Positions 353-62,015 of a stretch of 64,000 nucleotides of DNA are shown one piece after another. The stretch is from Sulfurospirillum oryzae. GTDB taxonomy: Bacteria; Campylobacterota; Campylobacteria; Campylobacterales; Sulfurospirillaceae. The translations under genes and the position numbers were made by a program. Each line of letters opens with the position of its first letter. The stretch's first letter is position 1. Below the pieces are notes generated by a model. The model was not told the DNA's origin, searched no databases, and saw only the letters and a list, made by a program, of their open reading frames with translations. The stretch is taken from contig NZ_JANZKZ010000002.1 in NCBI RefSeq assembly GCF_025770725.1, forward strand, positions 62,001-126,000. The letters run 5' to 3'.

Positions 353-364
353 TTTACATGTAAA
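353..364. repeat. TTTACATGTAAA palindrome between convergent genes
   Basis: Perfect 12-bp palindrome, extended to 14 bp (CTTTACATGTAAAG), filling most of the 21-bp gap between the convergent partial gene and sdaA. It might serve as part of a bidirectional terminator, though without a U-tract on either side. Confidence 0.9.
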
Positions 365-367
365 GCT

Positions 368-1558
368 CTAAAGATAACGTTTGGCTAGACCTCCGAGCGA
401 AGTCTCTTTGTAGTTGGTGTTCATGTCTTTTCCCGTTTCGACCATCGTTTGGATGATCTCATCAAAACTTACTTTATGCGCTCCATCGGTGTATGAGGTG
501 TATTCTGCTGCGTCAATGGCGCGAATGGCCGCCACCGCGTTGCGCTCGATGCAGGGTACTTGCACGTAGCCTGCTATGGGGTCGCACGTCATACCAAGAT
601 GATGCTCTAACCCCATCTCTGCCGCATAATCAATCTGTTGTAAATTGCCGCCAAAAAGATACGATGCCATGCCTGCTGCCATCGAACATGCCACACCTAC
701 TTCGCCTTGACATCCCACTTCTGCACCCGAAATGGAGCCATTGAATTTTACGATATTCCCCAAAAGTCCCGCAACGGCAAGAGCACGCAAACAGTCAATT
801 TGATCTAAGTTGTAGAGTTCTTTAAGGTAGCGAAGGACAGCAGGTACGACCCCACATGCCCCACAAGTGGGTGCTGTCACGACAATATTGCCAGACGCGT
901 TCTCTTCACTGGTGGCGAGGGCATAGGCGAAGATGATGCCATGTGCTCGTTTTTCTTCTTTTCGTGCTTTGGCAAAGAACATGGGAGCTTTTCTGGGGTA
1001 TTGGAGAATGCCTGGCAGAACGCCGGATTGTTTCAATCCTCGATCGATTGTAGTCTGCATGCTCGCCCACACCTCGGCAAGATACTCCCAAATCGCTTCG
1101 CCTTCGTACGTTTCGACGTATTGCCACAGCTCTTTATGCTCTTTTTCGCACCATTTTATAATCTCGCCAAGCGTTGTGAGCGGATAGATCGAAGGCTCAG
1201 GTGTAGCACTCTCTCCCGCTTCTTTAAGCGCACTGCCTCCCACGCTGTAAACTTCCCAAGAGCCTAGTAGCTCTTGTTTATTGTCAAATGCTTCAAAAAA
1301 CATGCCATTGGAGTGAAACGGTTTGGTGATGTCGGGGCGAAAAAGGATTTCAACACCCTTCGTTGCTAAGGCTTGATGCAAGGCATCATCGGTTAAGTGA
1401 CCACGCCCTGTGGCGGCAAGCGAGCCAAAAAGCGTGACGCGGTACAAAGAGGCATTTGGGAAGCGTTTTTTAAAAAGCGTGCCAGCGTTATAAGGTCCCA
1501 TCGTGTGGCTAGAAGAGGGTCCATGCCCAATGCAGTAAAATGATTTGAGTGATTGCAT
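368..1558 (-). CDS. sdaA: L-serine dehydratase (L-serine ammonia-lyase), iron-sulfur type
   Basis: Deaminates L-serine to pyruvate and ammonia in the cytoplasm. The 396-residue protein has the family N-terminus around GPSSSHTMGP (residues 13-22), which belongs to the beta domain. The alpha domain carries the cysteine motif TCGACG and later CDP and VPC cysteines, the usual ligands of the oxygen-labile [4Fe-4S] cluster. It is shorter than the roughly 450-residue enteric enzymes but appears complete. The start is supported by an AAAGG ribosome site that abuts a TTTACATGTAAA palindrome. A TGCTATAAT -10 box lies upstream. The gene is monocistronic, convergent with the partial gene at the left edge and divergent from ruvX. 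Confidence 0.94.
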   Translation of the reverse strand: MQSLKSFYCIGHGPSSSHTMGPYNAGTLFKKRFPNASLYRVTLFGSLAATGRGHLTDDALHQALATKGVEILFRPDITKPFHSNGMFFEAFDNKQELLGSWEVYSVGGSALKEAGESATPEPSIYPLTTLGEIIKWCEKEHKELWQYVETYEGEAIWEYLAEVWASMQTTIDRGLKQSGVLPGILQYPRKAPMFFAKARKEEKRAHGIIFAYALATSEENASGNIVVTAPTCGACGVVPAVLRYLKELYNLDQIDCLRALAVAGLLGNIVKFNGSISGAEVGCQGEVGVACSMAAGMASYLFGGNLQQIDYAAEMGLEHHLGMTCDPIAGYVQVPCIERNAVAAIRAIDAAEYTSYTDGAHKVSFDEIIQTMVETGKDMNTNYKETSLGGLAKRYL

Positions 1559-1567
1559 GACACACCT

Positions 1568-1579
1568 TTTACATGTAAA
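1568..1579. repeat. TTTACATGTAAA palindrome in the sdaA leader
   Basis: Perfect copy 9 bases upstream of the sdaA start codon. Its last bases run into the AAAGG ribosome-binding site, and it lies between the -10 box and the start. Confidence 0.9.
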
Positions 1580-1590
1580 AATTGTGGTGG

Positions 1591-2764: not shown

Positions 2765-3952
2765 ATGGATTTTGAAACAATGGATAAAGAGTATGTGTTG
2801 CAGACGTATGCGAGAAACTATGTCAATTTTAAACACGGTATTAACGCAACACTTTTTGATGATAAAGGCAGAGATTATATCGATTTTACGAGCGGTATAG
2901 GTGTGGTCAGTGTAGGACATGGCAATCAAAGACTTGCCGATGCGATAAGTGAGCAAGCACGCAATATCATTCATACGTCTAATCTTTACATGATCGAACC
3001 ACAGGCAAGACTCGCCAAAAAAATCAATGAACTTACAGGCTTTGATGTTGCGGTCTTTTTTGGAAACTCAGGCGCTGAGGCGAATGAGGGAGCCATTAAA
3101 CTAGCACGCAAATACGGTGAGAAAAAATTTGCCAATAAAAAATATAAAGTCTTAACCCTAGAACACTCGTTTCACGGAAGAACCATAACAACGGTGAAAG
3201 CAACAGGTCAAGAGAGCTTTCATAAAACGGCTTTTGCACCGTATCCAGAAGGATTTTCATACACAAAAGAGATCGCAGATCTTTACAATGCTATCGATGA
3301 TGAAACGGTTGCCGTCATGATCGAACTCGTGCAAGGCGAGGGTGGCGTTAAAGCGTTTCCAAAAGCAGACATTCAAGCGTTGGCAAAGTTTTTAAAAGAG
3401 AAAGAGATTTTGCTCATTATCGATGAAGTGCAAAGTGGCGTCTTTAGAAGCGGCGAGTTTTTAGCGACATCTCTTTATGAGATTGAGCCAGACATCATCA
3501 CGCTTGCAAAAGGTCTTGCGGGTGGCGTGCCTATCGGTGCGGTTGTGACCAAACACAAAGACATCTTTGAAGCGGGAGATCACGGCAGTACGTTTGGAGG
3601 AAACTTTCTCTCCACACGCGCAGGACTTGAAGCGTTAACCATCTTAGAAGAGTACAAACAAAGCGGTATGCTGGATGAGGCACTGATCTATTTTGATGAG
3701 AAACTAAAATCTACATGTAAAGCATTTCCAGAGCTTTTTGAAAGCGTAGAAGGACTTGGTTTAATGCGTGGTATGAGATGTCTTAATGGCGACATCTTAG
3801 CCAGTGTCATCAAAAAAGCGTTTGAGCATGGTGTCCTTGTACTCAAAGCGGGCAAAAATACGCTTCGTTTCTTGCCACCACTCACGATCTCTAAAGAAGA
3901 GATGGATGAGGGCTTTAAACGTCTAGAGAGTGCGTGCAAAGCGCTTTTGTAA
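2765..3952 (+). CDS. argD: Acetylornithine (and possibly succinyldiaminopimelate) aminotransferase
   Basis: PLP-dependent class III aminotransferase converting N-acetylglutamate semialdehyde to N-acetylornithine in arginine biosynthesis. About 395 residues. Visible landmarks are the GxGV start of the large domain, FFGNSGAEANE (phosphate-binding), SFHGRT, the cofactor-contacting IIDEVQSGVFRSG, the Schiff-base lysine in TLAKGLAGGVPIGA, and STFGGNFLS. The start at 2765 follows a GAGGAG ribosome site and the product begins with residues typical of ArgD. The midA-like gene starts 9 bases downstream, so the genes probably form an operon with thiS. An odd-substrate omega-aminotransferase is possible but less likely. 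Confidence 0.9.
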   Translation: MDFETMDKEYVLQTYARNYVNFKHGINATLFDDKGRDYIDFTSGIGVVSVGHGNQRLADAISEQARNIIHTSNLYMIEPQARLAKKINELTGFDVAVFFGNSGAEANEGAIKLARKYGEKKFANKKYKVLTLEHSFHGRTITTVKATGQESFHKTAFAPYPEGFSYTKEIADLYNAIDDETVAVMIELVQGEGGVKAFPKADIQALAKFLKEKEILLIIDEVQSGVFRSGEFLATSLYEIEPDIITLAKGLAGGVPIGAVVTKHKDIFEAGDHGSTFGGNFLSTRAGLEALTILEEYKQSGMLDEALIYFDEKLKSTCKAFPELFESVEGLGLMRGMRCLNGDILASVIKKAFEHGVLVLKAGKNTLRFLPPLTISKEEMDEGFKRLESACKALL

Positions 3953-3961: not shown

Positions 3962-4987
3962 GTGAAATTTAGCGAGTATATGCAAACGTGGCTCTATGGC
4001 AATGAGGGCTACTACACTAAAGAGCGAACCATTGGAAAAGAGGGTGATTTTTACACCGCTGTGAGTACGAGTATGTTCTTTGGTGGATCTATTGCTAAAC
4101 GACTGATTTCAACCATTGAGTGTGGGTTTTTAAGCCCAACTTGTCATGTGGTTGAGATCGGCGCGCACAAAGGCTATTTGCTTGCCGATATGATTCAGTT
4201 TATCTATACCCTCAAACCAGAACTTCTTCAAACCCTTACATTTATCATTGTTGAGCCTTTTGGCGCGAACCAAGCGATGCAAAAAACGTACTTTGAAGAG
4301 GCATTTGGTGATGCCATAAAACTTTTACATGTAAAGTGTTTGGAAGCGTTTACATGTAAAGAGGCATTCTTTGTTGCCAATGAGATTTTCGATGCTTTTT
4401 CGTGTGAACTCATCAAAGAAGATCAAATGCTTTTTATTGAAAATGGAAAAGCTTTTTTTGATGTAATGGATGAAGAAACGAAGGGAAAAGCGGACGAATA
4501 TGGCATTCACAAAGGAGAGCTTTGTTTAGGGTATGAGCCTTTTGCAAAAGCAATGAGTCACTGTTGTGGACGCTTTGAATTTGTCACGTTTGATTACGGC
4601 GAAAAAGAAGCGAGAGATGATTTTTCACTGCGTGTTTATGCGAGCCATCAGGTGTATCCTTTTTTTGCACTCACCGATTTAGTGGAAGAAAAGCTGCGCG
4701 AACAAAATGATTTTAATACCTTTTTTGCCAATTCAGACATTACGTATGATGTCAACTTTAGTCATCTTTTTCATGCCTTTGAAAAAAGCGGCATCAGAGT
4801 GCATGACTATGGCACTCAGATGAAAGCGTTAGTCGATTTTGGATTGATTGAGCTTTTAGAACTGTTTGCTAAAAACGTTTCAGAAAAGCAGTACGAGATA
4901 GAATTAAACCGTATAAAAACATTGATCGATCCCTCTTTTATGGGCGAGCGATTTAAAATGGCGTGTTTTCGCAAAGGAGAAGTGTAA
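3962..4987 (+). CDS. SAM-dependent methyltransferase, MidA/NDUFAF7 family (DUF185)
   Basis: The 341-residue protein has the family pattern: an N-terminal GDFYTAVSTSMFFG stretch near residue 28, then the SAM-binding VVEIGAHKGYLLADM near 62, and a later FVANEIFDAF motif. The mitochondrial relatives methylate an arginine of a complex I subunit during assembly; the bacterial substrate is not known. The start is GTG. Two perfect TTTACATGTAAA palindromes lie inside the gene only 25 bases apart (4324 and 4349), read once as LHVK and once as FTCK. The stop codon overlaps the thiS start (TAATG). Confidence 0.85.
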   Translation: MKFSEYMQTWLYGNEGYYTKERTIGKEGDFYTAVSTSMFFGGSIAKRLISTIECGFLSPTCHVVEIGAHKGYLLADMIQFIYTLKPELLQTLTFIIVEPFGANQAMQKTYFEEAFGDAIKLLHVKCLEAFTCKEAFFVANEIFDAFSCELIKEDQMLFIENGKAFFDVMDEETKGKADEYGIHKGELCLGYEPFAKAMSHCCGRFEFVTFDYGEKEARDDFSLRVYASHQVYPFFALTDLVEEKLREQNDFNTFFANSDITYDVNFSHLFHAFEKSGIRVHDYGTQMKALVDFGLIELLELFAKNVSEKQYEIELNRIKTLIDPSFMGERFKMACFRKGEV

Positions 4988-6110: not shown

Positions 6111-6122
6111 TTTACATGTAAA
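6111..6122. repeat. TTTACATGTAAA palindrome upstream of fliL
   Basis: Perfect copy 13 bases upstream of the fliL start codon, immediately before the AAAGGAAA ribosome-binding site. Confidence 0.9.
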
Positions 6123-11255: not shown

Positions 11256-11265
11256 ACACTTTTAC

Positions 11266-11289
11266 ATGTAGAGGAAATTTCCTCTACAT
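11266..11289 (+). terminator. Perfect palindromic hairpin after rny
   Basis: ATGTAGAGGAAA followed directly by its reverse complement, 11 bases after the rny stop. There is no long U-run. The left edge overlaps a one-mismatch copy of the dispersed palindrome (TTTACATGTAGA at 11261). Confidence 0.5.
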
Positions 11290-11311: not shown

Positions 11312-13120
11312 ATGCACAACACACTCTATACTTTCAAAACCCTTTTTCACGAGATGAAGCGCTATAAAAAAGAGTTGATCTTTGCCAATGTTGTAGCTTT
11401 TCTAGCAGTGCTAGTGAGCACACCTGCACCTCTTTTGATGCCAATGTTGGTGGATGAAGTATTACTCGGCAAAAAAGGCTTTTTAACGCATAGCATTGAT
11501 ACTTTGTCGGCGCAAAACAACCCCGCTTATGTTTACATTGCTTCTGTTTTGTGTGTTGTTGTGTTGCTCAGATTTTTTTTCTTTTTATTGAACTATTGGC
11601 AAACGAAACTGTTTACGATTGTTTCTAAAAATATCGCTTTCAAAATGCGTAAAGATGTGTTAGCACACTTAAGCCATGTTGCAATGAATCAATTTGAATT
11701 TTTTGGTTCAGGTAAAGCAGCTTCACTGCTTGTAACCGATGTTGAAACCATTGATAATTTTTTAGGTGTTTTTGTCAGTCGTTTAATTATCTCAGTGTTT
11801 ACCATTGTAGGGGTAGGTGCTGTGCTTTTGATGATTCATTGGCAATTGGGACTTTTTATCTTGATTTTAAATCCAATAGTTATTCTTTTTACAACCAAAT
11901 TGGCAAAAAAAGTAGCAAAACTAAAAAAAGAGCAAAATAAAGCATTTGAACTTTTCCAAGACGCTCTTTTAGAGACGCTGGATATGTTTGTACAAATTCG
12001 CGCAACCAATAAAGAGAGACTCTTTTTTGATAAAGTTGAGCAACATGCTAAAACAATTAAAGAGAGCTCAATCATATTTGGCTATAAAAGTGATGGTGCT
12101 AACCGTCTTTCTTTCCTTGTTTTTTTATCAGGCTTTGAACTTTTTCGAGCGGCAAGCATCTTTGTTGTTGCCTATTCGGATTTGAGTATTGGTTCAATGC
12201 TTGCTATTTTTGGTTATTTATGGGTAATGATGCCACCTATTCAAGATATTTTGAATATCCAATATACTTACCATAATGCAGGTAAAGCACTGGATCGTAT
12301 TAATGAAATTATGAGATTAAACACAGAAGAGAGAGGTTTACATGTAAAGAATCCCTTTTCACAAAACAGTACCAATGCAATTGAGGTCAAAAACGTCAGC
12401 TTTAGCTACGATGGCGGTAAAAAGATTTTAGAGGACATTAGCCTTAGTATTCCAAAAGGCTCAAAAATCGCTATAATAGGGGCAAGTGGAAGTGGAAAAA
12501 CCACGTTGGCTCATTTGTTAGTTGGGCTTTATCCTCTTGAAGCTGGTGATATTTTGTTTGATGGTATTTCAATCAAAGAGATTGGCTTGGATGTGGTGCG
12601 TGAGCATCTCTTTTTAGTGTTACAAAATCCACAACTTTTTAATGCTTCTATGGCTCAAAATTTGATGATTGATGCAAAAACGGATAGAGGGTTGATCAGC
12701 GAGGCACTTCAAATTGCTCAGTTGGAGAGTTTTGTCAGCGAATTGCCCGATGGGCTAGACACGCAAATAGGCAAGCATGGCATTAAACTATCAGGTGGTC
12801 AAAGACAGCGCCTATCCATTGCGCGCATGGTGTTGCAAAATCCTAACGTGGTTATCTTGGATGAGTCCACATCGGCTTTGGATGTGCATACAGAAGCAAA
12901 ACTCTTTAATGCGCTTGAAAACTATCTTGAGGGCAAAACGACAATTATTATTGCCCATAGGCTTAGTACCATTAAAAAGGCTGATTTTATCTATGTCCTT
13001 GACAAAGGAAAAATTGTGGAGTCAGGAACACAAGAAGCATTGATGCGCCAAGAGGGTGCATTTTATGAATATGTTGTACAAAATAGAAGGAGTAAAAATG
13101 ATGAAAAAATTATGGCTTAG
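11312..13120 (+). CDS. ABC exporter, fused permease-ATPase (MsbA-like)
   Basis: The 602-residue half-transporter has six membrane helices in the first roughly 310 residues, then a nucleotide-binding domain with Walker A GASGSGKTT (near 393), signature LSGGQRQR, Walker B VVILDES and H-loop IIAHRLST. This is the type I exporter (B-family) layout used for lipid A flippases and drug or peptide exporters; the substrate cannot be read from sequence. A TTTACATGTAAA copy lies at 12337 in the linker. It overlaps the SYLF gene by 23 bases. Confidence 0.9.
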   Translation: MHNTLYTFKTLFHEMKRYKKELIFANVVAFLAVLVSTPAPLLMPMLVDEVLLGKKGFLTHSIDTLSAQNNPAYVYIASVLCVVVLLRFFFFLLNYWQTKLFTIVSKNIAFKMRKDVLAHLSHVAMNQFEFFGSGKAASLLVTDVETIDNFLGVFVSRLIISVFTIVGVGAVLLMIHWQLGLFILILNPIVILFTTKLAKKVAKLKKEQNKAFELFQDALLETLDMFVQIRATNKERLFFDKVEQHAKTIKESSIIFGYKSDGANRLSFLVFLSGFELFRAASIFVVAYSDLSIGSMLAIFGYLWVMMPPIQDILNIQYTYHNAGKALDRINEIMRLNTEERGLHVKNPFSQNSTNAIEVKNVSFSYDGGKKILEDISLSIPKGSKIAIIGASGSGKTTLAHLLVGLYPLEAGDILFDGISIKEIGLDVVREHLFLVLQNPQLFNASMAQNLMIDAKTDRGLISEALQIAQLESFVSELPDGLDTQIGKHGIKLSGGQRQRLSIARMVLQNPNVVILDESTSALDVHTEAKLFNALENYLEGKTTIIIAHRLSTIKKADFIYVLDKGKIVESGTQEALMRQEGAFYEYVVQNRRSKNDEKIMA

Positions 13121-15279: not shown

Positions 15280-15316
15280 TCTTACATGTAAAGCAAAAAT
15301 GCTTTACATGTAAAGA
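15280..15316 (+). terminator. Terminator made of two tandem palindromes
   Basis: A one-mismatch copy (CTTACATGTAAA, from 15281) and a perfect copy (TTTACATGTAAA, 15303-15314) of the dispersed palindrome face each other across AAAAA. Together they form a long hairpin, TTACATGTAAAGCA against TGCTTTACATGTAA, followed by ATTTTTTTAG. It can serve the converging repressor and cyclophilin genes. Confidence 0.75.
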
Positions 15317-21846: not shown

Positions 21847-23998
21847 GAATTTTAATTATAAATTTTGCACCTTGTGGTGTATTGATAACATGTAAAGAGC
21901 CATGACAGTGCTCTTCGATAATTGTTTTGGACATATAGAGTCCCAGACCTGTACCATTTTTTTCTATTTTTGTAGAAAAATAGGGGTCAAATATTTTTGG
22001 AATATTTGCCTCAGGAATACCACCTGCATTATCCTCAATCTCGATCACAAAGAGGGCATTTTCTTCATACGCATTGATCCATATAGTACCATCTTCTAAC
22101 TTTTTTTCAAGTATGGCATCTTGTGCATTTTTTAAAATATTGATTAAAACTTGCATCACTTGGGTCTCATACGTAATGAGTTCACTTTTAGAACTATTAT
22201 TTACATGTAACGTTATCTTATGCACATCCAAACTCTTGCCAATGATTTTGATCGCTTTATCAATAATGGTAGATAGTAAACTTTTTTCACAGTGCTGTTC
22301 AGGCCTAAAAAAGTTCCTAAAATCATCAATGGTGCATGTTAAAAATTGGATGTAATTTTCGATTTTACCAATGGCATTGTTTAAAAACTCCTCTTGGTCA
22401 ATTCTTCCTTGCTCACTTTTTAAGTCAAATTTTTTAAGACTTTGTTTGAGCTTGATACTTGCCGTCACCGTAGAGATAGAGCCAAGCGGTTGACGCCATT
22501 GGTGTGCAATCATGCTGATCATTTCGCCCATCTGCGCGAGTCTTGATTGGTAAAGCATCATTTTTTGGGTTTCCATATTTTCGATGACGCCCTCTTTGAT
22601 TTTTTTATCCATAGAGTCGTACAGCTCTTGCAACTCATGGCTCATGGCGGTAAAGTTGTCTAAAAGTGTGTTGATCTCTAAGATATTGGAGCGAGCTATT
22701 TTGGTTGCGATAAGCTTATCTTTAAACTGTTTAGTTGCCTCAATAAGATCGTACAGAGGCGAGAGGATCTGGGTTGAGAATTTCTCAGCACGAGAAAGCA
22801 GTACAAAGAGGAAAACAAGGTAGAACAGAGCCATCAAACCAAGTGCAAAGTAGCCTATTTTATCGGTTTTTGCTTTCAGTTTTGTGCTATTGGCAAGCAA
22901 TGAATCTTGATCAAGCAAGAGAATAAATTTCCAATTGGTTTGGGGAATTGTATTTTGCGTAATGATAAAATCACTCCCTTTACCATGAAATTCAGAAAGA
23001 CTGTTATTTTCTTGAACGATACGGCCAAGTGTCATTGCAAGTGCATTGGTTTTATTGGTAAAAAGATTGAAGTCTTGCGGTTTGCTAATGGTATTGGCTA
23101 TAGGCGCACTATAGGTATGCGATTTAAGCTCTTTAATGCCAAGATGAATTTCGAGTGCTTCATTCATTCCCAAAATTTGCCCCTCTTCATTGACAAGCAT
23201 CGCCATTGAAGTGTAGGGAAGTTTAATGGAGAGAATATTGTTGATGAGTTGATCTATCGTAACATCAATGCCTACAACGCCCTCTAAGAAGTCTCCTTTG
23301 TACACAGGTGCAATGGCACTGATCATCCATCCAAGCCCCGCTGGGTCTAGGTAGGCACTTGTCCAAACCACTTTTTTTGAAGGGTTGTGTATTTTATCGG
23401 CTAGGTAGTAAAAATTAAATGTTGGAATGTCCATGTCATGGGTGTATTGACTTAAAGCATCTGGCATAAAAGGGCAGAGTCTGTTCATGGAGTCATAGGA
23501 GTTAAAATAGACCTGCGCAATGTTTTCATTGGTCTTTAAAACAGCATTATAAAACGTATCGAGCTTTTCAGTGGCAATGGCTTTTGCAAGGCGATTTTGG
23601 CTTCCTTTTTGAACATCAGAGAAAAAGAGGGTACATGAGTCATCGTGTTTTTTTGTATTGGTGATGACACCGTTATTCATAAGGGTATACGTACTATCTT
23701 TGGTGTTTACATGTAAAGGATCAAAAGAGGTAAAAAAGTTTTCATGCTCTTTTTGAAACAAGAGGGTAATGTTTGAAATCGTTTTAAATTCATTATTGAT
23801 AATGGTAGCCGAACGATTGCTAATCTCTTGAATATGTACCTTTGTCTCTTCAATGAGAGCATTTTTAGTGGTTTCATTCACATAAGAATTACTCCAAAAA
23901 TACGCCCAAAGCAACATCACTTCAATAAGAATTAAAGGGAAAATGATTGATTTTAAATACTCTTTTTTGATGAGTTTTGAGAGCGTATTTTGTATCAT
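21824..23998 (-). CDS. Membrane sensor histidine kinase with periplasmic Cache-type domain
   Basis: The 724-residue protein has a first membrane helix (about 17-35), a large periplasmic region (to about 370) that looks like a double Cache sensor including VYKGDFLEGVVGIDVTI, a second helix (about 375-400), and a helical linker. The transmitter follows, with the H-box MIAHQWRQPL and an ATPase domain (N-box NILKNAQDAI, G1 EDNAGG, G2 GTGLGLYM). Ligand unknown; Cache domains bind small molecules such as carboxylates or amino acids. The gene is 4 bases downstream of the second kinase and overlaps the receiver-GGDEF-EAL gene. It carries a palindrome copy at 23706. Confidence 0.9.
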   Translation of the reverse strand: MIQNTLSKLIKKEYLKSIIFPLILIEVMLLWAYFWSNSYVNETTKNALIEETKVHIQEISNRSATIINNEFKTISNITLLFQKEHENFFTSFDPLHVNTKDSTYTLMNNGVITNTKKHDDSCTLFFSDVQKGSQNRLAKAIATEKLDTFYNAVLKTNENIAQVYFNSYDSMNRLCPFMPDALSQYTHDMDIPTFNFYYLADKIHNPSKKVVWTSAYLDPAGLGWMISAIAPVYKGDFLEGVVGIDVTIDQLINNILSIKLPYTSMAMLVNEEGQILGMNEALEIHLGIKELKSHTYSAPIANTISKPQDFNLFTNKTNALAMTLGRIVQENNSLSEFHGKGSDFIITQNTIPQTNWKFILLLDQDSLLANSTKLKAKTDKIGYFALGLMALFYLVFLFVLLSRAEKFSTQILSPLYDLIEATKQFKDKLIATKIARSNILEINTLLDNFTAMSHELQELYDSMDKKIKEGVIENMETQKMMLYQSRLAQMGEMISMIAHQWRQPLGSISTVTASIKLKQSLKKFDLKSEQGRIDQEEFLNNAIGKIENYIQFLTCTIDDFRNFFRPEQHCEKSLLSTIIDKAIKIIGKSLDVHKITLHVNNSSKSELITYETQVMQVLINILKNAQDAILEKKLEDGTIWINAYEENALFVIEIEDNAGGIPEANIPKIFDPYFSTKIEKNGTGLGLYMSKTIIEEHCHGSLHVINTPQGAKFIIKIRGEYSAN

Positions 23999-24002: not shown

Positions 24003-25220
24003 TTATCCTTCTTTTAGCTTGATAATGAATTTTGCTCCAGCTGGACTGTTGGTTGCTATTATTTCGCCTCCACAATGCTCTTCAATGATGGTTTTTGACA
24101 TATACAGACCTAGTCCTGTGCCATTTTTTTCCTGTTTAGTTGAAAAATAGGGTTCAAAAACATGTGGCAATACAGACTTAGGAATACCTCCAGCATTATC
24201 TTCAATACAAATAGTCTGCCATATTCCTTCAGATCCAATAGTAATGGTAATATGAGGATTGGGTGTCTCTCGCTCTTTGATGACATCTTCTGCATTTTTG
24301 AGAATATTAAGAATGACTTGCGTGACTTCGTTGGCATACGTAAAAATTTCATTGGTAGCATGTGTTTCGATGCTAATGGTAATGCCATTAATCTCTAAAG
24401 CTTTACCAATGATCTCTAAAGTACGGTTGACCAACTGCGAGAGTGTGACGCTCTCCTTTTGTTTGTTGGGTTTGAAAAAATTGCGAAAGTCATCAATGGT
24501 GTGGGTCAGAAATTGGACATAAGATTCGATCTTGCTCATCGCTTCATTCAAAAAGAGTTTGCTCGCCTCTTGTCCCTCAGGCGTTGAGTAGTCAAAGCGG
24601 TTTAGTGTGATTTTGAGTTTGATAGACGCTGCAACTGCAGAGACAGAGCCCAAAGGTTGGCGCCATTGATGCGCAATCATACTGATCATCTCACCCATCT
24701 GCGCAAGACGAGATTGTTGTAAGATATGCTTATCTTTTTCTCTATTTTTGGCAACTTCTTCTTCGATGCGGCGTTCAAGTGTTTGGTTGATTTCAATGAG
24801 TTCTAAATGGTTTTGACATGCCCGTACCGCATTTTCAAGTTTTGCATGAAATGAGGAAATGATGGCTTTGATAAGTTCAAGTTCAACGATCGTCGCCTCA
24901 AAAACAAATACGATCCAATCTTCTCCCATCTTTACATGTAAAAGGTGCTTACCACTTGGAGCATCGAAAGTGATCATCTCATCATACATGTTTGCCGAAG
25001 GGGTGACAAAGAGATCACTAAATGCTTTTTTACCATGTAAACAGATCTGCTTATATGTTTGAGTGCGTTTGTTATATTCCCAATATACAGACGCAAGAGC
25101 GCCTGTTTTGCGTGAAAAGACTTTCAAAAAATGTTTGACCATCTCTTCGAGTTGAAGTGATGTTCCTATTGCACTAACACATTCAAAAGTAATTAAAAGT
25201 TGTTCATTGAGTTGCTGCAT
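24003..25220 (-). CDS. Cytoplasmic histidine kinase with GAF-like N-terminus
   Basis: About 405 residues with no membrane helix. The first 140 residues look like a GAF-type sensor (weak call). A helical stretch with LERRIEEEVAKN follows, then a transmitter very similar to that of the next gene: H-box MIAHQWRQPL, TIDDFRNFF, NILKNAEDVI, EDNAGG and GTGLGLYM. The ATG at 25220 was chosen because AGGAGG lies just upstream. A palindrome copy at 24931 encodes LHVK. It heads or continues the kinase-kinase-EAL unit and may share the same receiver. Confidence 0.86.
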   Translation of the reverse strand: MQQLNEQLLITFECVSAIGTSLQLEEMVKHFLKVFSRKTGALASVYWEYNKRTQTYKQICLHGKKAFSDLFVTPSANMYDEMITFDAPSGKHLLHVKMGEDWIVFVFEATIVELELIKAIISSFHAKLENAVRACQNHLELIEINQTLERRIEEEVAKNREKDKHILQQSRLAQMGEMISMIAHQWRQPLGSVSAVAASIKLKITLNRFDYSTPEGQEASKLFLNEAMSKIESYVQFLTHTIDDFRNFFKPNKQKESVTLSQLVNRTLEIIGKALEINGITISIETHATNEIFTYANEVTQVILNILKNAEDVIKERETPNPHITITIGSEGIWQTICIEDNAGGIPKSVLPHVFEPYFSTKQEKNGTGLGLYMSKTIIEEHCGGEIIATNSPAGAKFIIKLKEG

Positions 25221-25319
25221 CAAATGCCTCCTGCGACACACATTTGCTAAAAGAAAATCATTGATTTTGCATCAGAGTAAGATACCATAAAGATGCTGAT
25301 ACCCGCAAATCATTCAAAA

Positions 25320-28074: not shown

Positions 28075-28086
28075 TTTACATGTAAA
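28075..28086. repeat. TTTACATGTAAA palindrome upstream of paralogue B
   Basis: Perfect copy in the divergent region between the two paralogous membrane-protein genes, about 25 bases upstream of a TGCTATAAT -10 box (28107-28115). Confidence 0.9.
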
Positions 28087-31549: not shown

Positions 31550-31561
31550 TTTACATGTAAA
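31550..31561. repeat. TTTACATGTAAA palindrome upstream of the Kef-type gene
   Basis: Perfect copy 9 bases upstream of the antiporter start codon. Its end merges with the AAAGGGG ribosome-binding site. Confidence 0.9.
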
Positions 31562-33262: not shown

Positions 33263-33268
33263 ATAATG

Positions 33269-33280
33269 TTTACATGTAAA
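33269..33280. repeat. TTTACATGTAAA palindrome upstream of the META lipoprotein gene
   Basis: Perfect copy 7 bases after the antiporter stop and 18 bases before the ATG at 33299, just upstream of the AAAGGAG ribosome site. Confidence 0.9.
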
Positions 33281-33298
33281 GATAGAAAGGAGCGTAGA

Positions 33299-40026: not shown

Positions 40027-40095
40027 GAAAATTCCTTGCGAGTAATAATTTAATGACAATTTTAGAAAATAAAGATGAACTGAGTATGAATTTTC

Positions 40096-40107
40096 TTTAC
40101 ATGTAAA
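40096..40107. repeat. TTTACATGTAAA palindrome in a divergent promoter region
   Basis: Perfect copy between the FtsX-like permease (minus) and the exonuclease (plus), about 70 bases upstream of the former and 55 of the latter. Confidence 0.9.
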
Positions 40108-40162
40108 ACATTTGAAAGCTATACCGAAGTACAATGCACACAATGTTGCAAGAGGGAGCGTT

Positions 40163-41051: not shown

Positions 41052-41063
41052 TTTACATGTAAA
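41052..41063. repeat. TTTACATGTAAA palindrome upstream of the TIR gene
   Basis: Perfect copy 10 bases upstream of the TIR gene start. Its end overlaps the AAAGGA ribosome-binding site. Confidence 0.9.
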
Positions 41064-42378: not shown

Positions 42379-42421
42379 TGCAAAGCCCCAATTTTAAGTA
42401 TTGAAGCTTTACATGTAAGGA

Positions 42422-48004: not shown

Positions 48005-49000
48005 TTATTCGACGTCGCAGTACTCTAAAGAAGGCAGGTTTGGCTTTTGAAGATTGTTATTATTGGCTATAAAAAGATTTTTGAGATTTTTGAGATTTTT
48101 AATCGAGTTTGGAAGATTACTTAAGAGGTTTTCTTCCACATCGAGTTCATAGAGATGTGATAAGTTTCCGATGCATTCAGGGAGGTTTTTAAGGCGGTTA
48201 GCACTCAAATCCAAAGAGGTAAGTTTGGAGAGTTTGCACAGTGTATTTGGCACACTCTCTAAGAGGTTGTTTTCTAAAGAGAGGATTTGCAAATCTTCTA
48301 GTTTTGAAAGGTCAAAGTCGATGGAGGTGAGATGGTTGGAGGCAAGGTTGAGTTTGACCAGCATGTCGTGTGCCTCTAATGAAGGAAGATTTTGTAAAAG
48401 ATTCCCCTCTAAGATGAGTGTTTCAAGCTCTTTTATTTCACCCAGCGATTGGGGCAATGTTGTTAATTTATTGAACGAAAGATCTAAATAATAGAGCGAT
48501 TGCATTGAGCTAAACACATCAGGGAGAGTACTAAAGTAATTGGTGTCCAAGCTTACATGTAAAAGTTTTTTGAGGTTTTTAAAAGCACCATCTAGATGGC
48601 TTAGGCGATTGACTGCAAGGGTTAAACGTGTTAAATTCGTCAGATCGTAAAAACTTTTTGGAAGTGAGCTTAACTGGTTGCCATTGAGGTTTAAAATAAC
48701 CAAAGATAAAAGTTCGCCAAAGGTTTCTGGCAGGCTTTGCAACAGATTGTTTTCGCACTGTAAATTGCGAAGATTTTTAAGCGAGCAAATGCTTTTTGGA
48801 AGCTCGCTTAGGCGGTTACCCGAGATTTTAAGCACACTAAGGTTTTGCAACACTCCAATGCTTTCAGGCAGGCTTTTGAGCTTTTTACGACTCAGATCAA
48901 GAGTGGTGAGGCTTTCAAGTTTTGAGAGTTCCCGAGGCAGAGTATGCTCTAAGCCTTGGGATTTAACCCAGTGTGCAAAATCGCGAATATTCTCACTCAT
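48005..49000 (-). CDS. Leucine-rich repeat protein in the nif cluster
   Basis: About 331 residues made of some twelve tandem 23-residue repeats of the pattern LxxLxxLxLxxNxLxxLPxx (bacterial, plant-like type). There is a short N-terminal cap (FAHWVKSQGLEHTLP) and no signal peptide, so it is probably cytoplasmic. No Fe-S cysteine cluster is present, unlike the LRV FeS proteins of some nif clusters. The start at 49000 overlaps the BFD-like gene by 8 bases, so it is coupled to the nifB-nifV operon. A protein-binding scaffold for Nif maturation is a guess. Confidence 0.8.
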   Translation of the reverse strand: MSENIRDFAHWVKSQGLEHTLPRELSKLESLTTLDLSRKKLKSLPESIGVLQNLSVLKISGNRLSELPKSICSLKNLRNLQCENNLLQSLPETFGELLSLVILNLNGNQLSSLPKSFYDLTNLTRLTLAVNRLSHLDGAFKNLKKLLHVSLDTNYFSTLPDVFSSMQSLYYLDLSFNKLTTLPQSLGEIKELETLILEGNLLQNLPSLEAHDMLVKLNLASNHLTSIDFDLSKLEDLQILSLENNLLESVPNTLCKLSKLTSLDLSANRLKNLPECIGNLSHLYELDVEENLLSNLPNSIKNLKNLKNLFIANNNNLQKPNLPSLEYCDVE

Positions 49001-50367: not shown

Positions 50368-50385
50368 CGTGTATTCCTTTGCTTC

Positions 50386-53822: not shown

Positions 53823-53854
53823 CAAACTATTGATCCGAAAATATGAGGCAAATG

Positions 53855-55636
53855 ATGGATACATCAGCAATGCAGAGTTTAAAATCTCGCTGTAAAAACA
53901 TGCGAATTTTATACATTGAAGACGACGAAGTTACACGAAAGTATACCCATTCTATTTTAAGTGAGTTTTTTGATTTTGTTGATATTGCCAGCGATGGGCA
54001 AAGTGGTTACGATATGTTTGTCGATGCCGAGATCGCGATTCCTCATTTAGGTCTTACCCAAGAGCTTAACACACAACGTTACAACCTTGTTATTACAGAC
54101 ATTAAAATGCCAAAAATGGATGGCATTGCTCTGATTGCTAAGATTCGTAAAATTTGTAAAGAGACGGCTATTATTGTCACGTCAGCACATAATGATGCGG
54201 AGTATTTGATCGAGACGATTCGCTTGGGTGTGGACGGTTACATTTTAAAGCCCATAGAACTTGACCAACTCTTAGATTCCCTTGCTTCAACGATTGAGAC
54301 GATTTTAATTAAAGAAGAACATAGGGCTTACACGAGCTCACTCAAGCAGACCATTGCGTTACAACAGTCTGCACTTGAGGAACAACTTCATACCGATGCA
54401 CTAACCAAATTGCCTAATAAAAATACGTTGGATCGTATATTAGAGCAGATCCAGCCTGTTGAAGTTCCCTCCCTTTTTCTCATTAACATTGATAATTTTA
54501 AAAATTACAATAAACTTTATGGCATTGATGCGGGGAATGAAATATTAGTAGAATTTGCACACCATCTTAAGGCCATTGCTACCTCTCTTTGTTATGATGT
54601 TTTTCGTATCTCTTCAAATGAATTCGTCATGCTTCGCCTTGATACACAACTAGACCCTGAAAAAATCTACGAAGATGTGACGCAAACCCTTGAAGTCCTT
54701 GATGGCATTGAGATTAAAGTGAAAGAACTGAATGAAAAAATATTAGTCAATATTTCAATGGGCGTAACATTTGATCAAGAGAACCTTTTTAGCAAAGCTT
54801 TTACCGCACTTGATTTTGCAAAAAGAACAGGTAAAAACTTTGTTGTCTATACCAGTAATTTAGATGAAACAGAGTCTTTAGCAAATGATTTTTATTGGCA
54901 AGATGTTATTGCCGATACGCTTGATAAAGACAATGTCGTGCCTTTTTTTCAACCTATTTGCAATCAAGAAGGACAAATTATAAAGTACGAAGCACTCATT
55001 CGTATTCGTACCAAAGATAAGTTAGAGCAAGAACAGTATGTTTCGCCTTACTACTTTTTAGATATTGCGCGCCGCACACGACAATACGATAGTCTAAGTC
55101 ATCGTATGATCGAAAAAGTGTTGGAGATGATGATAGCACACCCTACCGTGACATTTTCCATTAACTTTAGCTTTAGAGACATGCTCAACAAAGAAATTCG
55201 AGATCTTGTACGTTCAAAAATTATTCAGATGCAGGAAGAAAACCGAGCCATCAATCTTGTTTTTGAAGTAGTTGAGAGTGAAAAAGTGATCGACTACAAT
55301 ACCATTATAAATTTTCTAAAATACATTAAGTATGACAATGCACCGATTGCTATTGATGACTTTGGGACGGGTTATTCCAATTTTACGCATTTAATGGAAT
55401 TAAATCCAGGGTATCTCAAAATTGACGGTAGTTTGGTAAAAAATCTTGATACGGATATGAAATCGTTGAAACTTGTTAAGGGCATTGTCTCCTTTGCAAA
55501 AGCTTTACATGTAAAGACAATTGCTGAGTATGTGCATAAAAAAGAGATATTTGATATTTTAGTAGATATAGGTGTCGATGAGTTTCAAGGCTATTTTATT
55601 GGTGAACCTTGTCTGGAGCTACAATGTCGTCTTTAA
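53855..55636 (+). CDS. Receiver-GGDEF(degenerate)-EAL protein
   Basis: About 593 residues. The receiver (10-140) has phospho-acceptor Asp82 in VITDIKMPKMDG, and carries an insertion of about 16 residues between its second helix and third strand. A GGDEF-fold domain (about 180-320) reads ISSNEF in place of GGDEF, so no cyclase activity is expected. The EAL domain (about 340-590) retains EALIRI, IDDFGTGYSNF, LKIDGS, AEYVH and EFQGYFIGEP, so phosphodiesterase activity is likely. ATG 53855 is used because GAGG lies 6 bases upstream. Overlaps the kinase by 13 bases. Palindrome at 55504. Confidence 0.9.
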   Translation: MDTSAMQSLKSRCKNMRILYIEDDEVTRKYTHSILSEFFDFVDIASDGQSGYDMFVDAEIAIPHLGLTQELNTQRYNLVITDIKMPKMDGIALIAKIRKICKETAIIVTSAHNDAEYLIETIRLGVDGYILKPIELDQLLDSLASTIETILIKEEHRAYTSSLKQTIALQQSALEEQLHTDALTKLPNKNTLDRILEQIQPVEVPSLFLINIDNFKNYNKLYGIDAGNEILVEFAHHLKAIATSLCYDVFRISSNEFVMLRLDTQLDPEKIYEDVTQTLEVLDGIEIKVKELNEKILVNISMGVTFDQENLFSKAFTALDFAKRTGKNFVVYTSNLDETESLANDFYWQDVIADTLDKDNVVPFFQPICNQEGQIIKYEALIRIRTKDKLEQEQYVSPYYFLDIARRTRQYDSLSHRMIEKVLEMMIAHPTVTFSINFSFRDMLNKEIRDLVRSKIIQMQEENRAINLVFEVVESEKVIDYNTIINFLKYIKYDNAPIAIDDFGTGYSNFTHLMELNPGYLKIDGSLVKNLDTDMKSLKLVKGIVSFAKALHVKTIAEYVHKKEIFDILVDIGVDEFQGYFIGEPCLELQCRL

Positions 55637-59364: not shown

Positions 59365-59380
59365 TGGAATACATTATGCA
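59365..59380 (+). promoter_or_regulatory. Sigma-54-like promoter (-24/-12) of nifEN
   Basis: TGGAATACATTATGCA has GG at 59366-59367 and GC at 59378-59379, spacing 10. The predicted first transcribed base falls at about 59391, next to the nifE ATG. Confidence 0.62.
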
Positions 59381-59391
59381 AATCTATAATT

Positions 59392-60735
59392 ATGGTAAAT
59401 AAAAAACTGATCAAGGATTTGTTAAACGAGAGTGCTTGTTCTCATAACAAAACCAAAAAAAGTAGCTGTGACAAACCCAAACCTGGGGCGACAAGCGGAG
59501 GGTGTGCGTTCGAGGGGGCGCAAATATCACTCTTTCCTTATGCGGACGCTGTGCATTTGGTGCATGGCCCCGACACTTGTCTTGGCGCTTCATGGGAGAC
59601 TCGAGCGACACTTACAAGCTATGAAGGTGAAAACAATACTCCATTAGGCTATTGCACCAATGTCACCACGCAAGACATCATTTTTGGTGGTGACAAGAAG
59701 CTTGCGGACGCTCTTTCTTACATCGTAGAGCATAAAAATCCTAAGGCAATTTTTGTCTATGAAACCTGTGTGACAGCGATGATCGGTGATAACATTGACT
59801 ATACCTGTAAAACTGCACAAGATCAGTTTAACATTCCTATTGTAGCGGTGCATGCACCCGGTTTTGTGGGCAGTAAAAACTTAGGCTCTCGTCTTGCGGG
59901 TGAAGCGGTTTTGGACGCGCTTGTGGGTACGCGTGAGCCTGACAGTATTCATCCGTTTGGCATTAACTTGATCGGTGATTATAACGTGACGGGTGATATG
60001 TGGCAGTATAAGCCTATTTTGGAGCGTATTGGCATTAAAATCGTCTCAACCCTCTCAGGTGATGGTCGCATTGAAGCGATCCAAACAGCTCATACAGCAA
60101 AGCTCAATGTCATCGTCTGTGCGAAGTCTTTGGTCACCTTGTGCCGAAAAATGCAGGAGCGCTATAACATCCCTTATGTCAGCGTCTCGTTCTATGGTAA
60201 ACGTGACACCTCAAACGCGATTCGCTCCATCGTCAACGCGTTTGGCGATGCGGAATTGATCGCTAAAGCCGAAGCGGTTATTGCTGAGGAAGAGGCGAAG
60301 TTGACAGAGCGTTTGAAGTCTTATCATTTGATGCTTAAAGGCAAAAAAGCCATCTTAAACACCGGTGGAAATAAGTCATGGTCGATCGCTTCTGCCCTTC
60401 AAGACATTGGCATCGAAGTGGTCGCAACCTGTGTTCAAAAAGCCACCGAAGAAGATGTCGCCATAGCGAGTGAATATGTTCCCATCGTTTTTAAAAACCC
60501 CGGTGCTGAACAGCCAAGATTGATTGATGAGCATAAGGTGGACATTTTGCTTGCGGGTGGTCGTAGTCTTTACACGGCGATTAAAAAACGCATTGCCTTT
60601 GTCGATGTCAACCAAGAGAAAAAAGTGAGTTATGGCGCTTACGGAGGGCTTGAAAACCTTGCTATTGATGTCTGTGCCGCACTTTCAAATCCTGTCTTTA
60701 AACTTGTCGCAAAGGAGGCACCATGGGAGCTATGA
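59392..60735 (+). CDS. nifE: Nitrogenase FeMo-cofactor scaffold protein NifE
   Basis: Alpha-subunit-like half of the NifEN scaffold on which NifB-co matures. The 447-residue protein has the family N-terminus LLNESACSHN, CxxPKPGATSGGCAFEGAQ and LVHGPDTCLGASW with the P-cluster-like cysteines. It also has CVTAMIGDNID, HAPGFVGSKNLG and the YGAYGGLENLA end. ATG 59392 matches homologue length, but no ribosome-binding site precedes it. It overlaps nifN by 13 bases. Confidence 0.96.
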   Translation: MVNKKLIKDLLNESACSHNKTKKSSCDKPKPGATSGGCAFEGAQISLFPYADAVHLVHGPDTCLGASWETRATLTSYEGENNTPLGYCTNVTTQDIIFGGDKKLADALSYIVEHKNPKAIFVYETCVTAMIGDNIDYTCKTAQDQFNIPIVAVHAPGFVGSKNLGSRLAGEAVLDALVGTREPDSIHPFGINLIGDYNVTGDMWQYKPILERIGIKIVSTLSGDGRIEAIQTAHTAKLNVIVCAKSLVTLCRKMQERYNIPYVSVSFYGKRDTSNAIRSIVNAFGDAELIAKAEAVIAEEEAKLTERLKSYHLMLKGKKAILNTGGNKSWSIASALQDIGIEVVATCVQKATEEDVAIASEYVPIVFKNPGAEQPRLIDEHKVDILLAGGRSLYTAIKKRIAFVDVNQEKKVSYGAYGGLENLAIDVCAALSNPVFKLVAKEAPWEL

Positions 60736-62015
60736 TTAACATCAAAGAGTTTAAAAACACAACGCTCAAACCTTTACATGTAAACCCTCTCAAGCTCTCT
60801 CAGCCGATGGGTGCGACGCTCGCATTTTTGGGCATTAAAAACTGTATGCCTTTGATGCACGGAGCGCAAGGGTGTGCTTCGTTTACGAAGGTGCTTTTCA
60901 CGAGGCACTTTAACGATCCTATCGCCATTCAAACCACTGCGGTCAATGACATTACCGCTGTTATTGATGGAGGAGAGAAGGGCATCTCTGAGGCGGTTGA
61001 GAACATCACTAAAAAGGTAACGCCTGATTTGGTGGGGCTTTTTACAACGGGTATGACCGAGACCAAAGGCGATGACATCAAAGGTGCGACACTGCTTTTA
61101 AAAGAGAAGCAAAAAATGGTCTATGTGCATACGCCTGATTTTGAGGGTGGGCTTGAGAGTGGGTGGAGTTTGAGTGTTCAAAACATCATTACGCAACTCA
61201 TTGCGCCTTGTGCCCGTGTTCGTAAAGACAAAGCACTTCTCATCCCCAATGTCAATCTAAGCCCCATTGAAGTTGAAAAACTCAAAGAGGCGTTAGAGCT
61301 TTTAGACTTTGAAGTTTTGGCTCTTCCAGACCTGAGCGATTCGCTCGATGGACACTTGGGTGTCAAACAAGGCGCACTCAGCAGTGGCGGCATTAGCGTT
61401 GCGCAGATTGAGGCCTTAGGCGATGCGGGCGTGGTTATTACGGTAGGTCGCTCAGTTAAAAAATGCGGTGAGCTTTTTTGTGAAAAGTACCCTCAAAGTA
61501 CGCATCTTCATTTTGACAGTCTGATGGGCTTAGAAGCGAGTGATGATTTTTATGCCAAACTTTTAGCTTACATGGGCAGCAAAAGCGTACCCAGTGTCGT
61601 AAAGCGATGGCGCGCACGTTTGCAAGATGTACTTTTAGATACCCACTTTTCACTGGGCAAGGCAAAGATCATCATCGCCGATGAACCCGATAGTGCTTAT
61701 GCCCTCTCTAAAGCGCTTAGGGAAGCTGGAGGGACGTGTGAGGCGTATATTTCCCAGCGTAGTGAGGTGCAAGAAGCCTTTACATGTAAAGTTGTTATTG
61801 GCGATTTGGAAGAGGTCGAAAAAGCCCTTTCTGCGGCAGATATGCTCATTACCAACTATCATGGGGAGCGTTTAGCGCATAAGCATCATAAAGCCCTGCT
61901 TATTCGAGGCTTCCCCAATTACGAGCAAGTAGGTGTTGCCCTTCGCCACAACATTTTGTATGAAGGCAGTTGCGCCTTTTTATGCGAAACAGCCAATCTT
62001 TTAGGACATCATTAA
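60723..62015 (+). CDS. nifN: Nitrogenase FeMo-cofactor scaffold protein NifN
   Basis: Beta-subunit-like half of NifEN. The 430-residue protein has LKLSQPMGATLAFLGIKNCMPLMHGAQGCASF near the N-terminus, FTTGMTETKGDDI, the VNLSP and GGISVAQIEALG segments, and ends in a HNILYEGSCAFLCE-like region. It starts at 60723 after an AAAGGAGG site, overlapping nifE. Two perfect TTTACATGTAAA copies lie inside, at 60773 (LHVN) and 61779 (FTCK). The gene ends the nif region in this window. Confidence 0.95.
   Translation: MGAMINIKEFKNTTLKPLHVNPLKLSQPMGATLAFLGIKNCMPLMHGAQGCASFTKVLFTRHFNDPIAIQTTAVNDITAVIDGGEKGISEAVENITKKVTPDLVGLFTTGMTETKGDDIKGATLLLKEKQKMVYVHTPDFEGGLESGWSLSVQNIITQLIAPCARVRKDKALLIPNVNLSPIEVEKLKEALELLDFEVLALPDLSDSLDGHLGVKQGALSSGGISVAQIEALGDAGVVITVGRSVKKCGELFCEKYPQSTHLHFDSLMGLEASDDFYAKLLAYMGSKSVPSVVKRWRARLQDVLLDTHFSLGKAKIIIADEPDSAYALSKALREAGGTCEAYISQRSEVQEAFTCKVVIGDLEEVEKALSAADMLITNYHGERLAHKHHKALLIRGFPNYEQVGVALRHNILYEGSCAFLCETANLLGHH

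What the first reader, a model, noticed from the sequence alone, without database searches (positions are those of the whole stretch)
353..61790. A 12-bp palindrome, TTTACATGTAAA, is iterated 20 times in 64 kb
Exact copies start at 353, 1568, 4324, 4349, 6111, 12337, 15303, 23706, 24931, 28075, 31550, 33269, 34910, 35106, 35499, 40096, 41052, 55504, 60773 and 61779, with at least eight one-mismatch copies. With about 60 percent A+T, chance predicts around 0.02 copies, so enrichment is on the order of a thousandfold. Copies occur inside unrelated genes in two permitted reading frames (FTCK and LHVK/N). That argues for selection or copying of the DNA word itself and not of a protein motif. It resembles cyanobacterial HIP1 or neisserial uptake sequences, but I know of no named function for this word in this group. 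Candidate roles are uptake or recombination signal, nucleoid-protein site, or methylation target (core ACATGT/CATG).
Basis: partly seen in the sequence, partly recalled or inferred. Interest (0 to 1): 0.88.

Follow-up and report, generated by a model that had tools for sequence, protein, structure and literature searches.

The report
Iterated palindromic DNA word in Sulfurospirillum
Sulfurospirillum bacteria carry hundreds of copies of one 12-letter mirror-symmetric DNA word, held in place even at the expense of their proteins and eroding in a lineage that also lost one DNA-methylating enzyme, so it is probably a self-recognition mark rather than chance or a gene feature.

Summary
In detail: 20 exact TTTACATGTAAA in 64 kb (shuffle expectation 0.02), 549 in the 2.63 Mb genome, and 14-792 copies in each of 24 genus genomes. 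The core TACATGTA is enriched in 32 of 397 class genomes (my cut), patchily over three families, with flank dialects.

It is held as DNA: in each of four word-rich species, words shared by at least two others are kept at 14-16 of 18-20 sites, against 8-14% for neighbouring 12-mers. It overrides protein sequence.

In the sister pair G017/G009, nested among word-rich species, it has eroded (112 and 14 copies) to background or below. That pair lacks one gene, an orphan D12-class adenine methyltransferase, which the 14 genus genomes above 500 copies all have. The link is imperfect: several core-rich genomes lack the gene, one carrier has 258 copies, and only three contrasts are independent.

Best reading: a HIP1-like iterated palindrome acting as a (probably methylated) self mark for DNA uptake or recombination, like CtsM/RAATTY in Campylobacter. 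A ParB paralogue, N6_N4 methyltransferases, terminus exclusion and promoter operators were tested and disfavoured.

The parts
353..364 (.). exact 12-mer, intergenic, convergent genes
1568..1579 (.). exact 12-mer, intergenic
4324..4335 (.). exact 12-mer in ORF 3962-4987 (LHVK frame); present at this site in many relatives; CTTACATGTAAG in L048
4349..4360 (.). exact 12-mer in ORF 3962-4987 (FTCK frame; the word-poor relative L009 has TTTCAATGTGAA, FQCE)
6111..6122 (.). exact 12-mer, intergenic
12337..12348 (.). exact 12-mer in ORF 11312-13120
15281..15292 (.). one-mismatch copy CTTACATGTAAA, paired with 15303
   Evidence: core at 15283
15303..15314 (.). exact 12-mer, convergent intergenic; with 15281 it folds as a hairpin followed by a T run (terminator-like)
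23706..23717 (.). exact 12-mer in ORF 21824-23998 (-)
24931..24942 (.). exact 12-mer in ORF 24003-25241 (-)
28075..28086 (.). exact 12-mer, intergenic, divergent genes
31550..31561 (.). exact 12-mer, intergenic
33269..33280 (.). exact 12-mer at the start of ORF 33266-33793
34910..34921 (.). exact 12-mer in ORF 34457-35224 (-)
35106..35117 (.). exact 12-mer in ORF 34457-35224 (-)
35499..35510 (.). exact 12-mer in ORF 35234-35839 (-)
40096..40107 (.). exact 12-mer in ORF 38944-40200 (-)
41052..41063 (.). exact 12-mer, intergenic
55504..55515 (.). exact 12-mer in ORF 53843-55636
60773..60784 (.). exact 12-mer in ORF 60723-62015 (nitrogenase-cofactor-type gene, named by eye)
61779..61790 (.). exact 12-mer in ORF 60723-62015
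3710..3721 (.). core variant TCTACATGTAAA
9329..9340 (.). core variant GCTACATGTAGA
11261..11272 (.). core variant TTTACATGTAGA
22200..22211 (.). core variant TTTACATGTAAC
36324..36335 (.). core variant GCTACATGTAAG
42408..42419 (.). core variant TTTACATGTAAG
48552..48563 (.). core variant CTTACATGTAAA
50006..50017 (.). core variant CTTACATGTAAA
51554..51565 (.). core variant CCTACATGTAAA

Best explanation
TTTACATGTAAA is the Sulfurospirillum dialect of an iterated palindromic DNA word (core TACATGTA, extended CTTTACATGTAAAG with an A-rich 5' and a T-rich 3' arm). An active force at DNA level keeps it at hundreds of places against coding constraint. SHOWN: genome-wide iteration, dialects, conservation at orthologous places, cost to proteins, and erosion at or below background conservation in one lineage that also lacks an orphan D12-class adenine methyltransferase (called MT-A here). 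INFERRED: MT-A methylates inside the word (some of its strong relatives sit in a genus that I take to be Helicobacter, where CATG-specific enzymes of this kind are known; not tested). The word, in methylated form, is a self mark that the DNA-uptake or recombination machinery prefers, so word-bearing alleles spread by biased transformation (molecular drive), much as C. jejuni imports only DNA methylated by CtsM at RAATTY.
For: 549 copies genome-wide, control 0; 24 of 24 genus genomes have it; core enriched in 32 of 397 class genomes by my cut (at least 90 copies and 3x the reversed control). A dialect form at the same orthologous site and dialects by genome. A word shared by at least two other word-rich genomes is kept in G000 16/20, G001 16/20, G004 15/18, G007 14/18, but in G017 5/26 and G009 1/19; pairwise between those four, nearby 12-mers are kept 8-14%. 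Amino-acid identity in word codons is 557/605 among the four (flanks 2485/3094) but 155/222 in G017 and 86/168 in G009 (flanks 905/1150, 652/859). All 14 genus genomes above 500 copies have MT-A (in G012 as two pieces on a gapped contig); of the 10 at or below 412, one (G023) has it. In G009 and G017 the neighbours are there and the gene alone is missing, and they are sisters inside the rich clade. Copies left are of the order of neutral decay from an assumed 680: 125 expected, 112 seen in G017; 37 expected, 14 seen in G009. In family f8 strong relatives of MT-A (E up to 1e-120) occur in 6 of 9 core-rich against 4 of 42 other genomes, Fisher p 8e-4, not corrected for kinship. ComEC in 49 of 50 genomes including G009 and G017, so competence is at least possible. 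CtsM precedent: passages of PMC10046745 and PMC8468864.
Against: No strong MT-A relative was found in core-rich G013 (1201 cores), G021 (671), G184 (1124), G341 (379), G149 (611), G317 (368), G377 (782), G330 (246); G184 and G149 have no D12-class hit at all. So MT-A is not necessary for the core, and G341 has its own dialect without it. Strong relatives occur in many genomes without the word, such as genus g18, so it is not sufficient. G023 has MT-A with only 258 copies (92% complete). Sisters G021 and G022 differ in words (124 and 62 12-mers; 15 cores in 60 kb and 2 in 39 kb) though neither has MT-A. The phylogenetic test has three independent pairs only: two agree, none opposes, p 0.5. Other genes missing in G017/G009 were not surveyed, and MT-A was found after two other families had failed, so the match is partly post hoc. 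No methylation, uptake or competence data exist here. Known uptake words are not palindromes (recalled).
Confidence: 0.4

Rival explanations
1. HIP1-type ratchet: a methyltransferase plus a methylation-directed repair process creates and protects the palindrome, which need have no function of its own (Elhai's model for cyanobacteria).
For: Iterated palindrome; other words in relatives (TAGTACTA in a 21-kb piece of L041, TCATGA excess in G083); one-base deviations mostly at the ends; partial association with an orphan methyltransferase, with exceptions, as Elhai also reports (section read).
Against: The 12-14 bp specificity with A-rich arms is longer than usual methyltransferase sites (recalled). 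Words override amino acids and are then removed faster than flanks change in G009, which points to a strong force. MutS/MutL content of these genomes was not tested.
Confidence: 0.22
2. Binding site of an unknown dimeric nucleoid or chromosome-organising protein present at hundreds of sites.
For: Perfect dyad with A-rich left and T-rich right arms to about 9 bp beyond the core in G007, the window and G346; flank dialects also in genomes without MT-A, as if a protein's specificity had drifted; 17 of 19 close core pairs are spaced 19-28 bp, about two helical turns.
Against: No extra ParB: exactly one HTH_ParB in 21 of 22 genomes, rich and poor alike. No terminus gap in G007: 3-17 cores in each of 20 stretches. 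The A-rich arms are not seen in G137 and G377. Hundreds of individually selected sites that alter proteins would be costly.
Confidence: 0.22
3. Transcription-factor operators of a large regulon.
For: Palindromic shape; about 7-fold or higher density between genes than inside them.
Against: Densest between convergent genes (3.18 per kb) rather than divergent (1.13) or tandem (1.30); 97 of 161 copies lie in genes.
Confidence: 0.04
4. Terminator cassettes: the word is mainly an RNA hairpin element.
For: Highest density between convergent genes; the pair at 15281/15303 folds at z -5.7 ahead of a T run; excess of close pairs, 19 core pairs within 40 bp against 6.3 expected.
Against: Most copies are single and 97 of 161 lie inside genes; a single word makes only a short A/T-rich stem. 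Best seen as a secondary use, as with uptake words elsewhere (recalled). Only one pair was folded.
Confidence: 0.05
5. Chance or compositional artefact.
For: None found.
Against: 0.02 expected against 20 seen; reversed control 0 against 549; conservation.
Confidence: 0.001

Closest known systems
HIP1 (GCGATCGC) and alternate HIPs of cyanobacteria (Elhai 2015, PMC4390886; abstract, outline and part 1 of section 3.4 seen)
   Same: Palindromic word iterated through genes and spacers; replaced by other palindromes in some relatives; association with orphan methyltransferases, with exceptions; deviations mostly at the ends
   Different: Other phylum; A+T-rich; 12-14 bp with A-rich/T-rich arms; graded flank dialects; a lineage in which erosion can be followed
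DNA uptake sequences of Neisseriaceae and Pasteurellaceae (DUS/USS)
   Same: Hundreds of dispersed copies, dialects between relatives, inverted pairs forming terminators (their features are recalled)
   Different: Palindromic; no uptake assay or receptor known here; a methyltransferase is partly associated
CtsM/RAATTY methylation-gated uptake of Campylobacter jejuni
   Same: Same class of bacteria; an adenine methyltransferase marks DNA accepted for uptake. That CtsM is Cj0208 is recalled.
   Different: RAATTY is short and common (27,280 motifs in NCTC11168, PMC4889913 passage); the word here is long and rare by chance, so enrichment shows
parS/Noc/KorB and SlmA sites
   Same: TTT...AAA-type or 12-bp palindromes spread on a chromosome (recalled)
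   Different: No ParB paralogue, no terminus exclusion seen, far more copies

Membership tests
HIP-type highly iterated palindrome | perfect palindrome in great excess over a Markov background, genome-wide | tested here: met
   window and G007 against third-order Markov; 549 genome-wide against 0 for the reversed word
HIP-type highly iterated palindrome | occurs within genes, not only in spacers | tested here: met
   97 of 161 copies in genes over 624 kb of four genomes
HIP-type highly iterated palindrome | other palindromes replace it in relatives | tested here: met
   TAGTACTA 13 against 0.33 expected in 21 kb of L041, no TACATGTA there; flank dialects
HIP-type highly iterated palindrome | a methyltransferase specific for the word or its core is generally present | tested here: inconclusive
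   association with many exceptions; specificity not measured; only two of the methyltransferase families (PF01555, PF02086) were searched
DNA uptake sequence (DUS/USS) | competent cells take up word-bearing DNA preferentially | not testable with these tools
   needs a transformation assay
DNA uptake sequence (DUS/USS) | competence machinery present | tested here: met
   ComEC in 49 of 50 genomes; not discriminating, as word-poor genomes have it too; other competence genes not searched
DNA uptake sequence (DUS/USS) | cognate receptor (ComP-like) | not tested
   no candidate searched
CtsM-type methylated self mark | adenine methyltransferase whose loss ends the function of the mark | tested here: inconclusive
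   MT-A absence coincides with word erosion in one lineage; other core-rich genomes lack it
ParB/Noc site set | dedicated ParB-family reader beyond the chromosomal ParB | tested here: not met
   one HTH_ParB in 21 of 22 genomes, two in word-poor G032
SlmA/Noc nucleoid-occlusion sites | sites missing around the terminus | tested here: not met
   20 stretches of 20 kb at 160-kb steps of G007 (3.18 Mb, one contig) all hold cores; the terminus itself was not mapped and a gap under 140 kb would be missed

The most novel reading that the evidence does not exclude
Free-living Campylobacterota use a palindromic, methylation-gated DNA passport: an orphan D12 adenine methyltransferase marks an iterated word, uptake or recombination prefers marked DNA, the word spreads by molecular drive against coding constraint, and species diverge into dialects. 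It would be the first palindromic uptake word that I know of (recalled) and would join HIP1, DUS and CtsM in one kind of mechanism.
Probability: 0.3. Interest if true: 0.9.

Novelty: new variant of a known kind. Interest (0 to 1): 0.78.

Why it matters
What iterated genomic words such as HIP1 are for is a long-standing open question. Here is a natural knock-out: two sister species in which the maintaining force has ended, with stages from full maintenance to near-complete erosion, a measured cost to proteins, and one candidate gene missing between intact neighbours. Cultured, to my knowledge harmless relatives (e.g. S. multivorans, S. deleyianum) make methylation, binding and uptake directly testable. 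A self mark for uptake would also help to build genetic tools for organohalide-respiring bacteria.

Tried and rejected
N6_N4 methyltransferase (PF01555): hits in 9 of 22 genomes, none in word-rich G001, G007, G341, G184, G149, G137, G367, G377; rejected. ParB paralogue: one HTH_ParB in 21 of 22; rejected. D12 methyltransferase (PF02086): hits in 17 of 22, which led to MT-A; as a strict one-to-one reader it is rejected. Before I wrote down a prediction: G012, G015, G016, G020 positive (all correct), G019 and G022 negative (correct, but G019 is 77% complete), G014 and G023 negative (wrong: G014 carries another allele at another place, G023 carries MT-A), G018 likely positive (wrong; 86% complete). 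ComEC is near universal and decides nothing. Terminus exclusion and promoter bias: not seen. NCBIfam gave two weak hits below cut-off and solved structures none for MT-A; plasmid hits with an annotation are mostly called DNA adenine methylase or Dam family (25 of 98 records listed). Literature: TTTACATGTAAA occurs in 3 unrelated papers and TACATGTA as a word in 3 papers on Phytophthora; the listings (titles and abstract starts) showed nothing on such a word in Campylobacterota. Only that open-licence library was searched. One search counted some sites more than once; one search replaces it.


Full report
WHAT IS THERE. The window lies at G000:C2:62001-126000 of a 2,632,398-bp genome in 11 contigs whose RadA is 98% identical to that of Sulfurospirillum diekertiae. 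All 20 stated copies of TTTACATGTAAA exist; shuffles give 0.02 and a third-order Markov model 0.02. There are 8 one-mismatch copies, 7 of them changed at the outer two positions, and 30 copies of the core TACATGTA against 0.73 expected. The genome has 549 copies; the reversed word has none. All 24 genomes of the genus held here carry it, from 14 (G009) to 792 (G011).

SPREAD AND DIALECTS. Among 397 genomes drawn from the class, 134 have at least one 12-mer, but large counts are confined to family f1 and a few genomes of f8 and f3. For the core TACATGTA, with the reversed core as control, I count as rich those with at least 90 copies and three times the control: 20 of 22 genomes in f1, 9 of 51 in f8, and 3 in f3, 32 of 397 in all (f8 tabulated). 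The distribution is patchy: in genus g12 of f8 five genomes have 113-848 cores and the others 8-61. Flanks differ by lineage: TT before the core in Sulfurospirillum, CT in G213, G137 and G377, TC (CTCTACATGTAGAG) in G341 (7 cores only), and broad ACATGT in G010. At the orthologous site 4324, relative L048 has CTTACATGTAAG. A 21-kb piece of L041, a Campylobacterales metagenome-assembled genome, has TAGTACTA 13 times against 0.33 expected and no TACATGTA. G083 has no core in 100 kb but twice the expected TCATGA. The word has more than 12 bases: outward from the core the half-site reads T (93%), T (65%), C (46%, A only 6%), a position poor in A, then five A-rich positions (36-41%), in G007 (432 half-sites), and likewise in the window and in G346 of another family; G137 and G377 show no A-rich arm.

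WHERE COPIES LIE. Over 624 kb of four word-rich genomes (G000, G001, G004, G007; simple ORF caller), 12-mers occur at 0.17 per kb in genes, 1.13 between divergent, 1.30 between tandem and 3.18 between convergent genes; 97 of 161 are in genes. Close pairs are in excess (core: 19 within 40 bp, 6.3 expected; 17 of them at 19-28 bp). The pair at 15281/15303 folds as a terminator-like hairpin (z -5.7). In G007 (one 3.18-Mb contig) each of 20 stretches at 160-kb steps has 3-17 cores, so no wide terminus gap is seen.

IT IS HELD AT DNA LEVEL. Orthologous 64-80 kb of G000, G001, G004, G007, G017 and G009 were aligned. Between the first four (79-83% identical) 12-mers are kept at 55-92% of aligned sites and nearby 12-mers at 8-14%. 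Counting each orthologous site once, a word present in at least two other rich genomes is kept in G000 16/20, G001 16/20, G004 15/18, G007 14/18, but in G017 5/26 and in G009 1/19. Amino acids in word codons: 557/605 identical among the four against 2485/3094 in flanking codons; 155/222 against 905/1150 in G017; 86/168 against 652/859 in G009. These pooled codon counts include the same site seen from several genomes. Words thus force residues that proteins otherwise avoid, and they are removed once the force ends.

A NATURAL KNOCK-OUT AND A CANDIDATE GENE. On a tree of the radA region (one locus of about 4.3 kb) G017 and G009 are sisters (98/97) inside the rich clade. Their remaining copies (112, 14) are of the order expected if an assumed 680 words had decayed neutrally since their common branch (125, 37); under the same sum with their own branches G000, G001 and G003 would keep 118, 187 and 15 but have 549, 679 and 566. 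Of three DNA-reading families tried (PF01555, HTH_ParB, D12), one subfamily of D12-class adenine methyltransferases (profile A1) fits in part. In Sulfurospirillum I call it MT-A: it precedes a small secreted ORF and a Tat-signal-like gene, with a cheY-like gene on the other side in most carriers (a different gene there in G002, G003, G015, G016 and G020), and I recognised by eye no restriction gene within about 1.5 kb. It is present in all 14 genus genomes with more than 500 copies (in G012 in pieces) and in G023 (258 copies). No strong hit was found in G009, G013, G017, G018, G019, G021 and G022, of which G018 and G019 are 86% and 77% complete; G010 and G014 carry a different allele elsewhere. 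In G009 and G017, as in G010, G014, G021 and G022, the flanking genes are there and this gene alone is missing; the place was not found in G013 and G018 and is cut off in G019. That it is a loss in G009/G017 is inferred from the tree. In f8, strong relatives are in 6 of 9 rich and 4 of 42 other genomes (Fisher p 8e-4; 6 of 10 against 4 of 41 and p 0.002 with a looser cut; not corrected for kinship).

RESULTS AGAINST. Core-rich G013, G021, G184, G341, G149, G317, G377 and G330 lack a strong relative, and G184 and G149 have no D12 hit at all. Strong relatives abound in genomes without the word. G021 and G022 differ in words without either having it. The formal comparison finds only three independent pairs (two agree, none opposes, p 0.5). 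Other genes missing in G017/G009 were not surveyed. The methyltransferase is therefore a linked part at best, and the protein that reads the word is not identified. ComEC is in 49 of 50 genomes tested, the exception being an 86%-complete one, so competence is possible throughout and does not discriminate.

MECHANISM. I favour a self mark in DNA uptake or recombination. A force that spreads alleles regardless of their cost to proteins most easily explains why hundreds of places, many in coding sequence, hold the word and revert afterwards. A precedent exists in the same class: C. jejuni imports only DNA methylated by CtsM at RAATTY (passages of PMC10046745 and, with the motif written RATTY, PMC8468864), and RAATTY is given as the site of Cj0208 (PMC4889913 and PMC4687069 passages); that CtsM is Cj0208 is recalled. 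PMC4687069 mentions an orthologue of the CATG-specific hpyIM in some C. jejuni; that MT-A belongs to that group is my inference from strong hits in genus g18, which I take to be Helicobacter. Elhai's repair ratchet for HIP1 (abstract, outline and first part of section 3.4 of PMC4390886) is the main rival, with an unknown nucleoid protein next.

NOVELTY. The word was not found in print for these bacteria in the searches made (open-licence library only). It works like HIP1 and meets HIP1's descriptive features except a proven methyltransferase. It is not shown to be an uptake sequence.

Noticed in passing
L041 (Campylobacterales MAG M17), whole 21.3 kb: A different iterated palindrome, TAGTACTA, 13 copies against 0.33 expected.
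   Followed up: partly
G083, 100 kb sampled (L060, L192-L195): TACATGTA absent and ACATGT under-represented (8 against 21 expected) but TCATGA doubled (102 against 48) and ATCATGAT 24 against 7.3; it carries a relative of MT-A.
   Followed up: partly
   Followed up: no
L163 and L167 (G338, G204): An MT-A relative sits beside a second, NPPY-type methyltransferase-like gene and a tsaD-like gene, both named by eye.
   Followed up: no
window 49255-51813 and 59392-62015: Nitrogen-fixation-type genes (homocitrate-synthase-like, nifB-like, nifE/N-like), named by eye from the translations.
   Followed up: no
window, whole; L066 (G387, 20 kb): GGCC strongly avoided in the window (observed/expected 0.15) and GATC in G387 (0.11), as under restriction pressure.
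   Followed up: no
G007, 400 kb sampled: CATCGATG is also over-represented (34 against 10.3 by second-order Markov, but 23 by third order), much more weakly.
   Followed up: no
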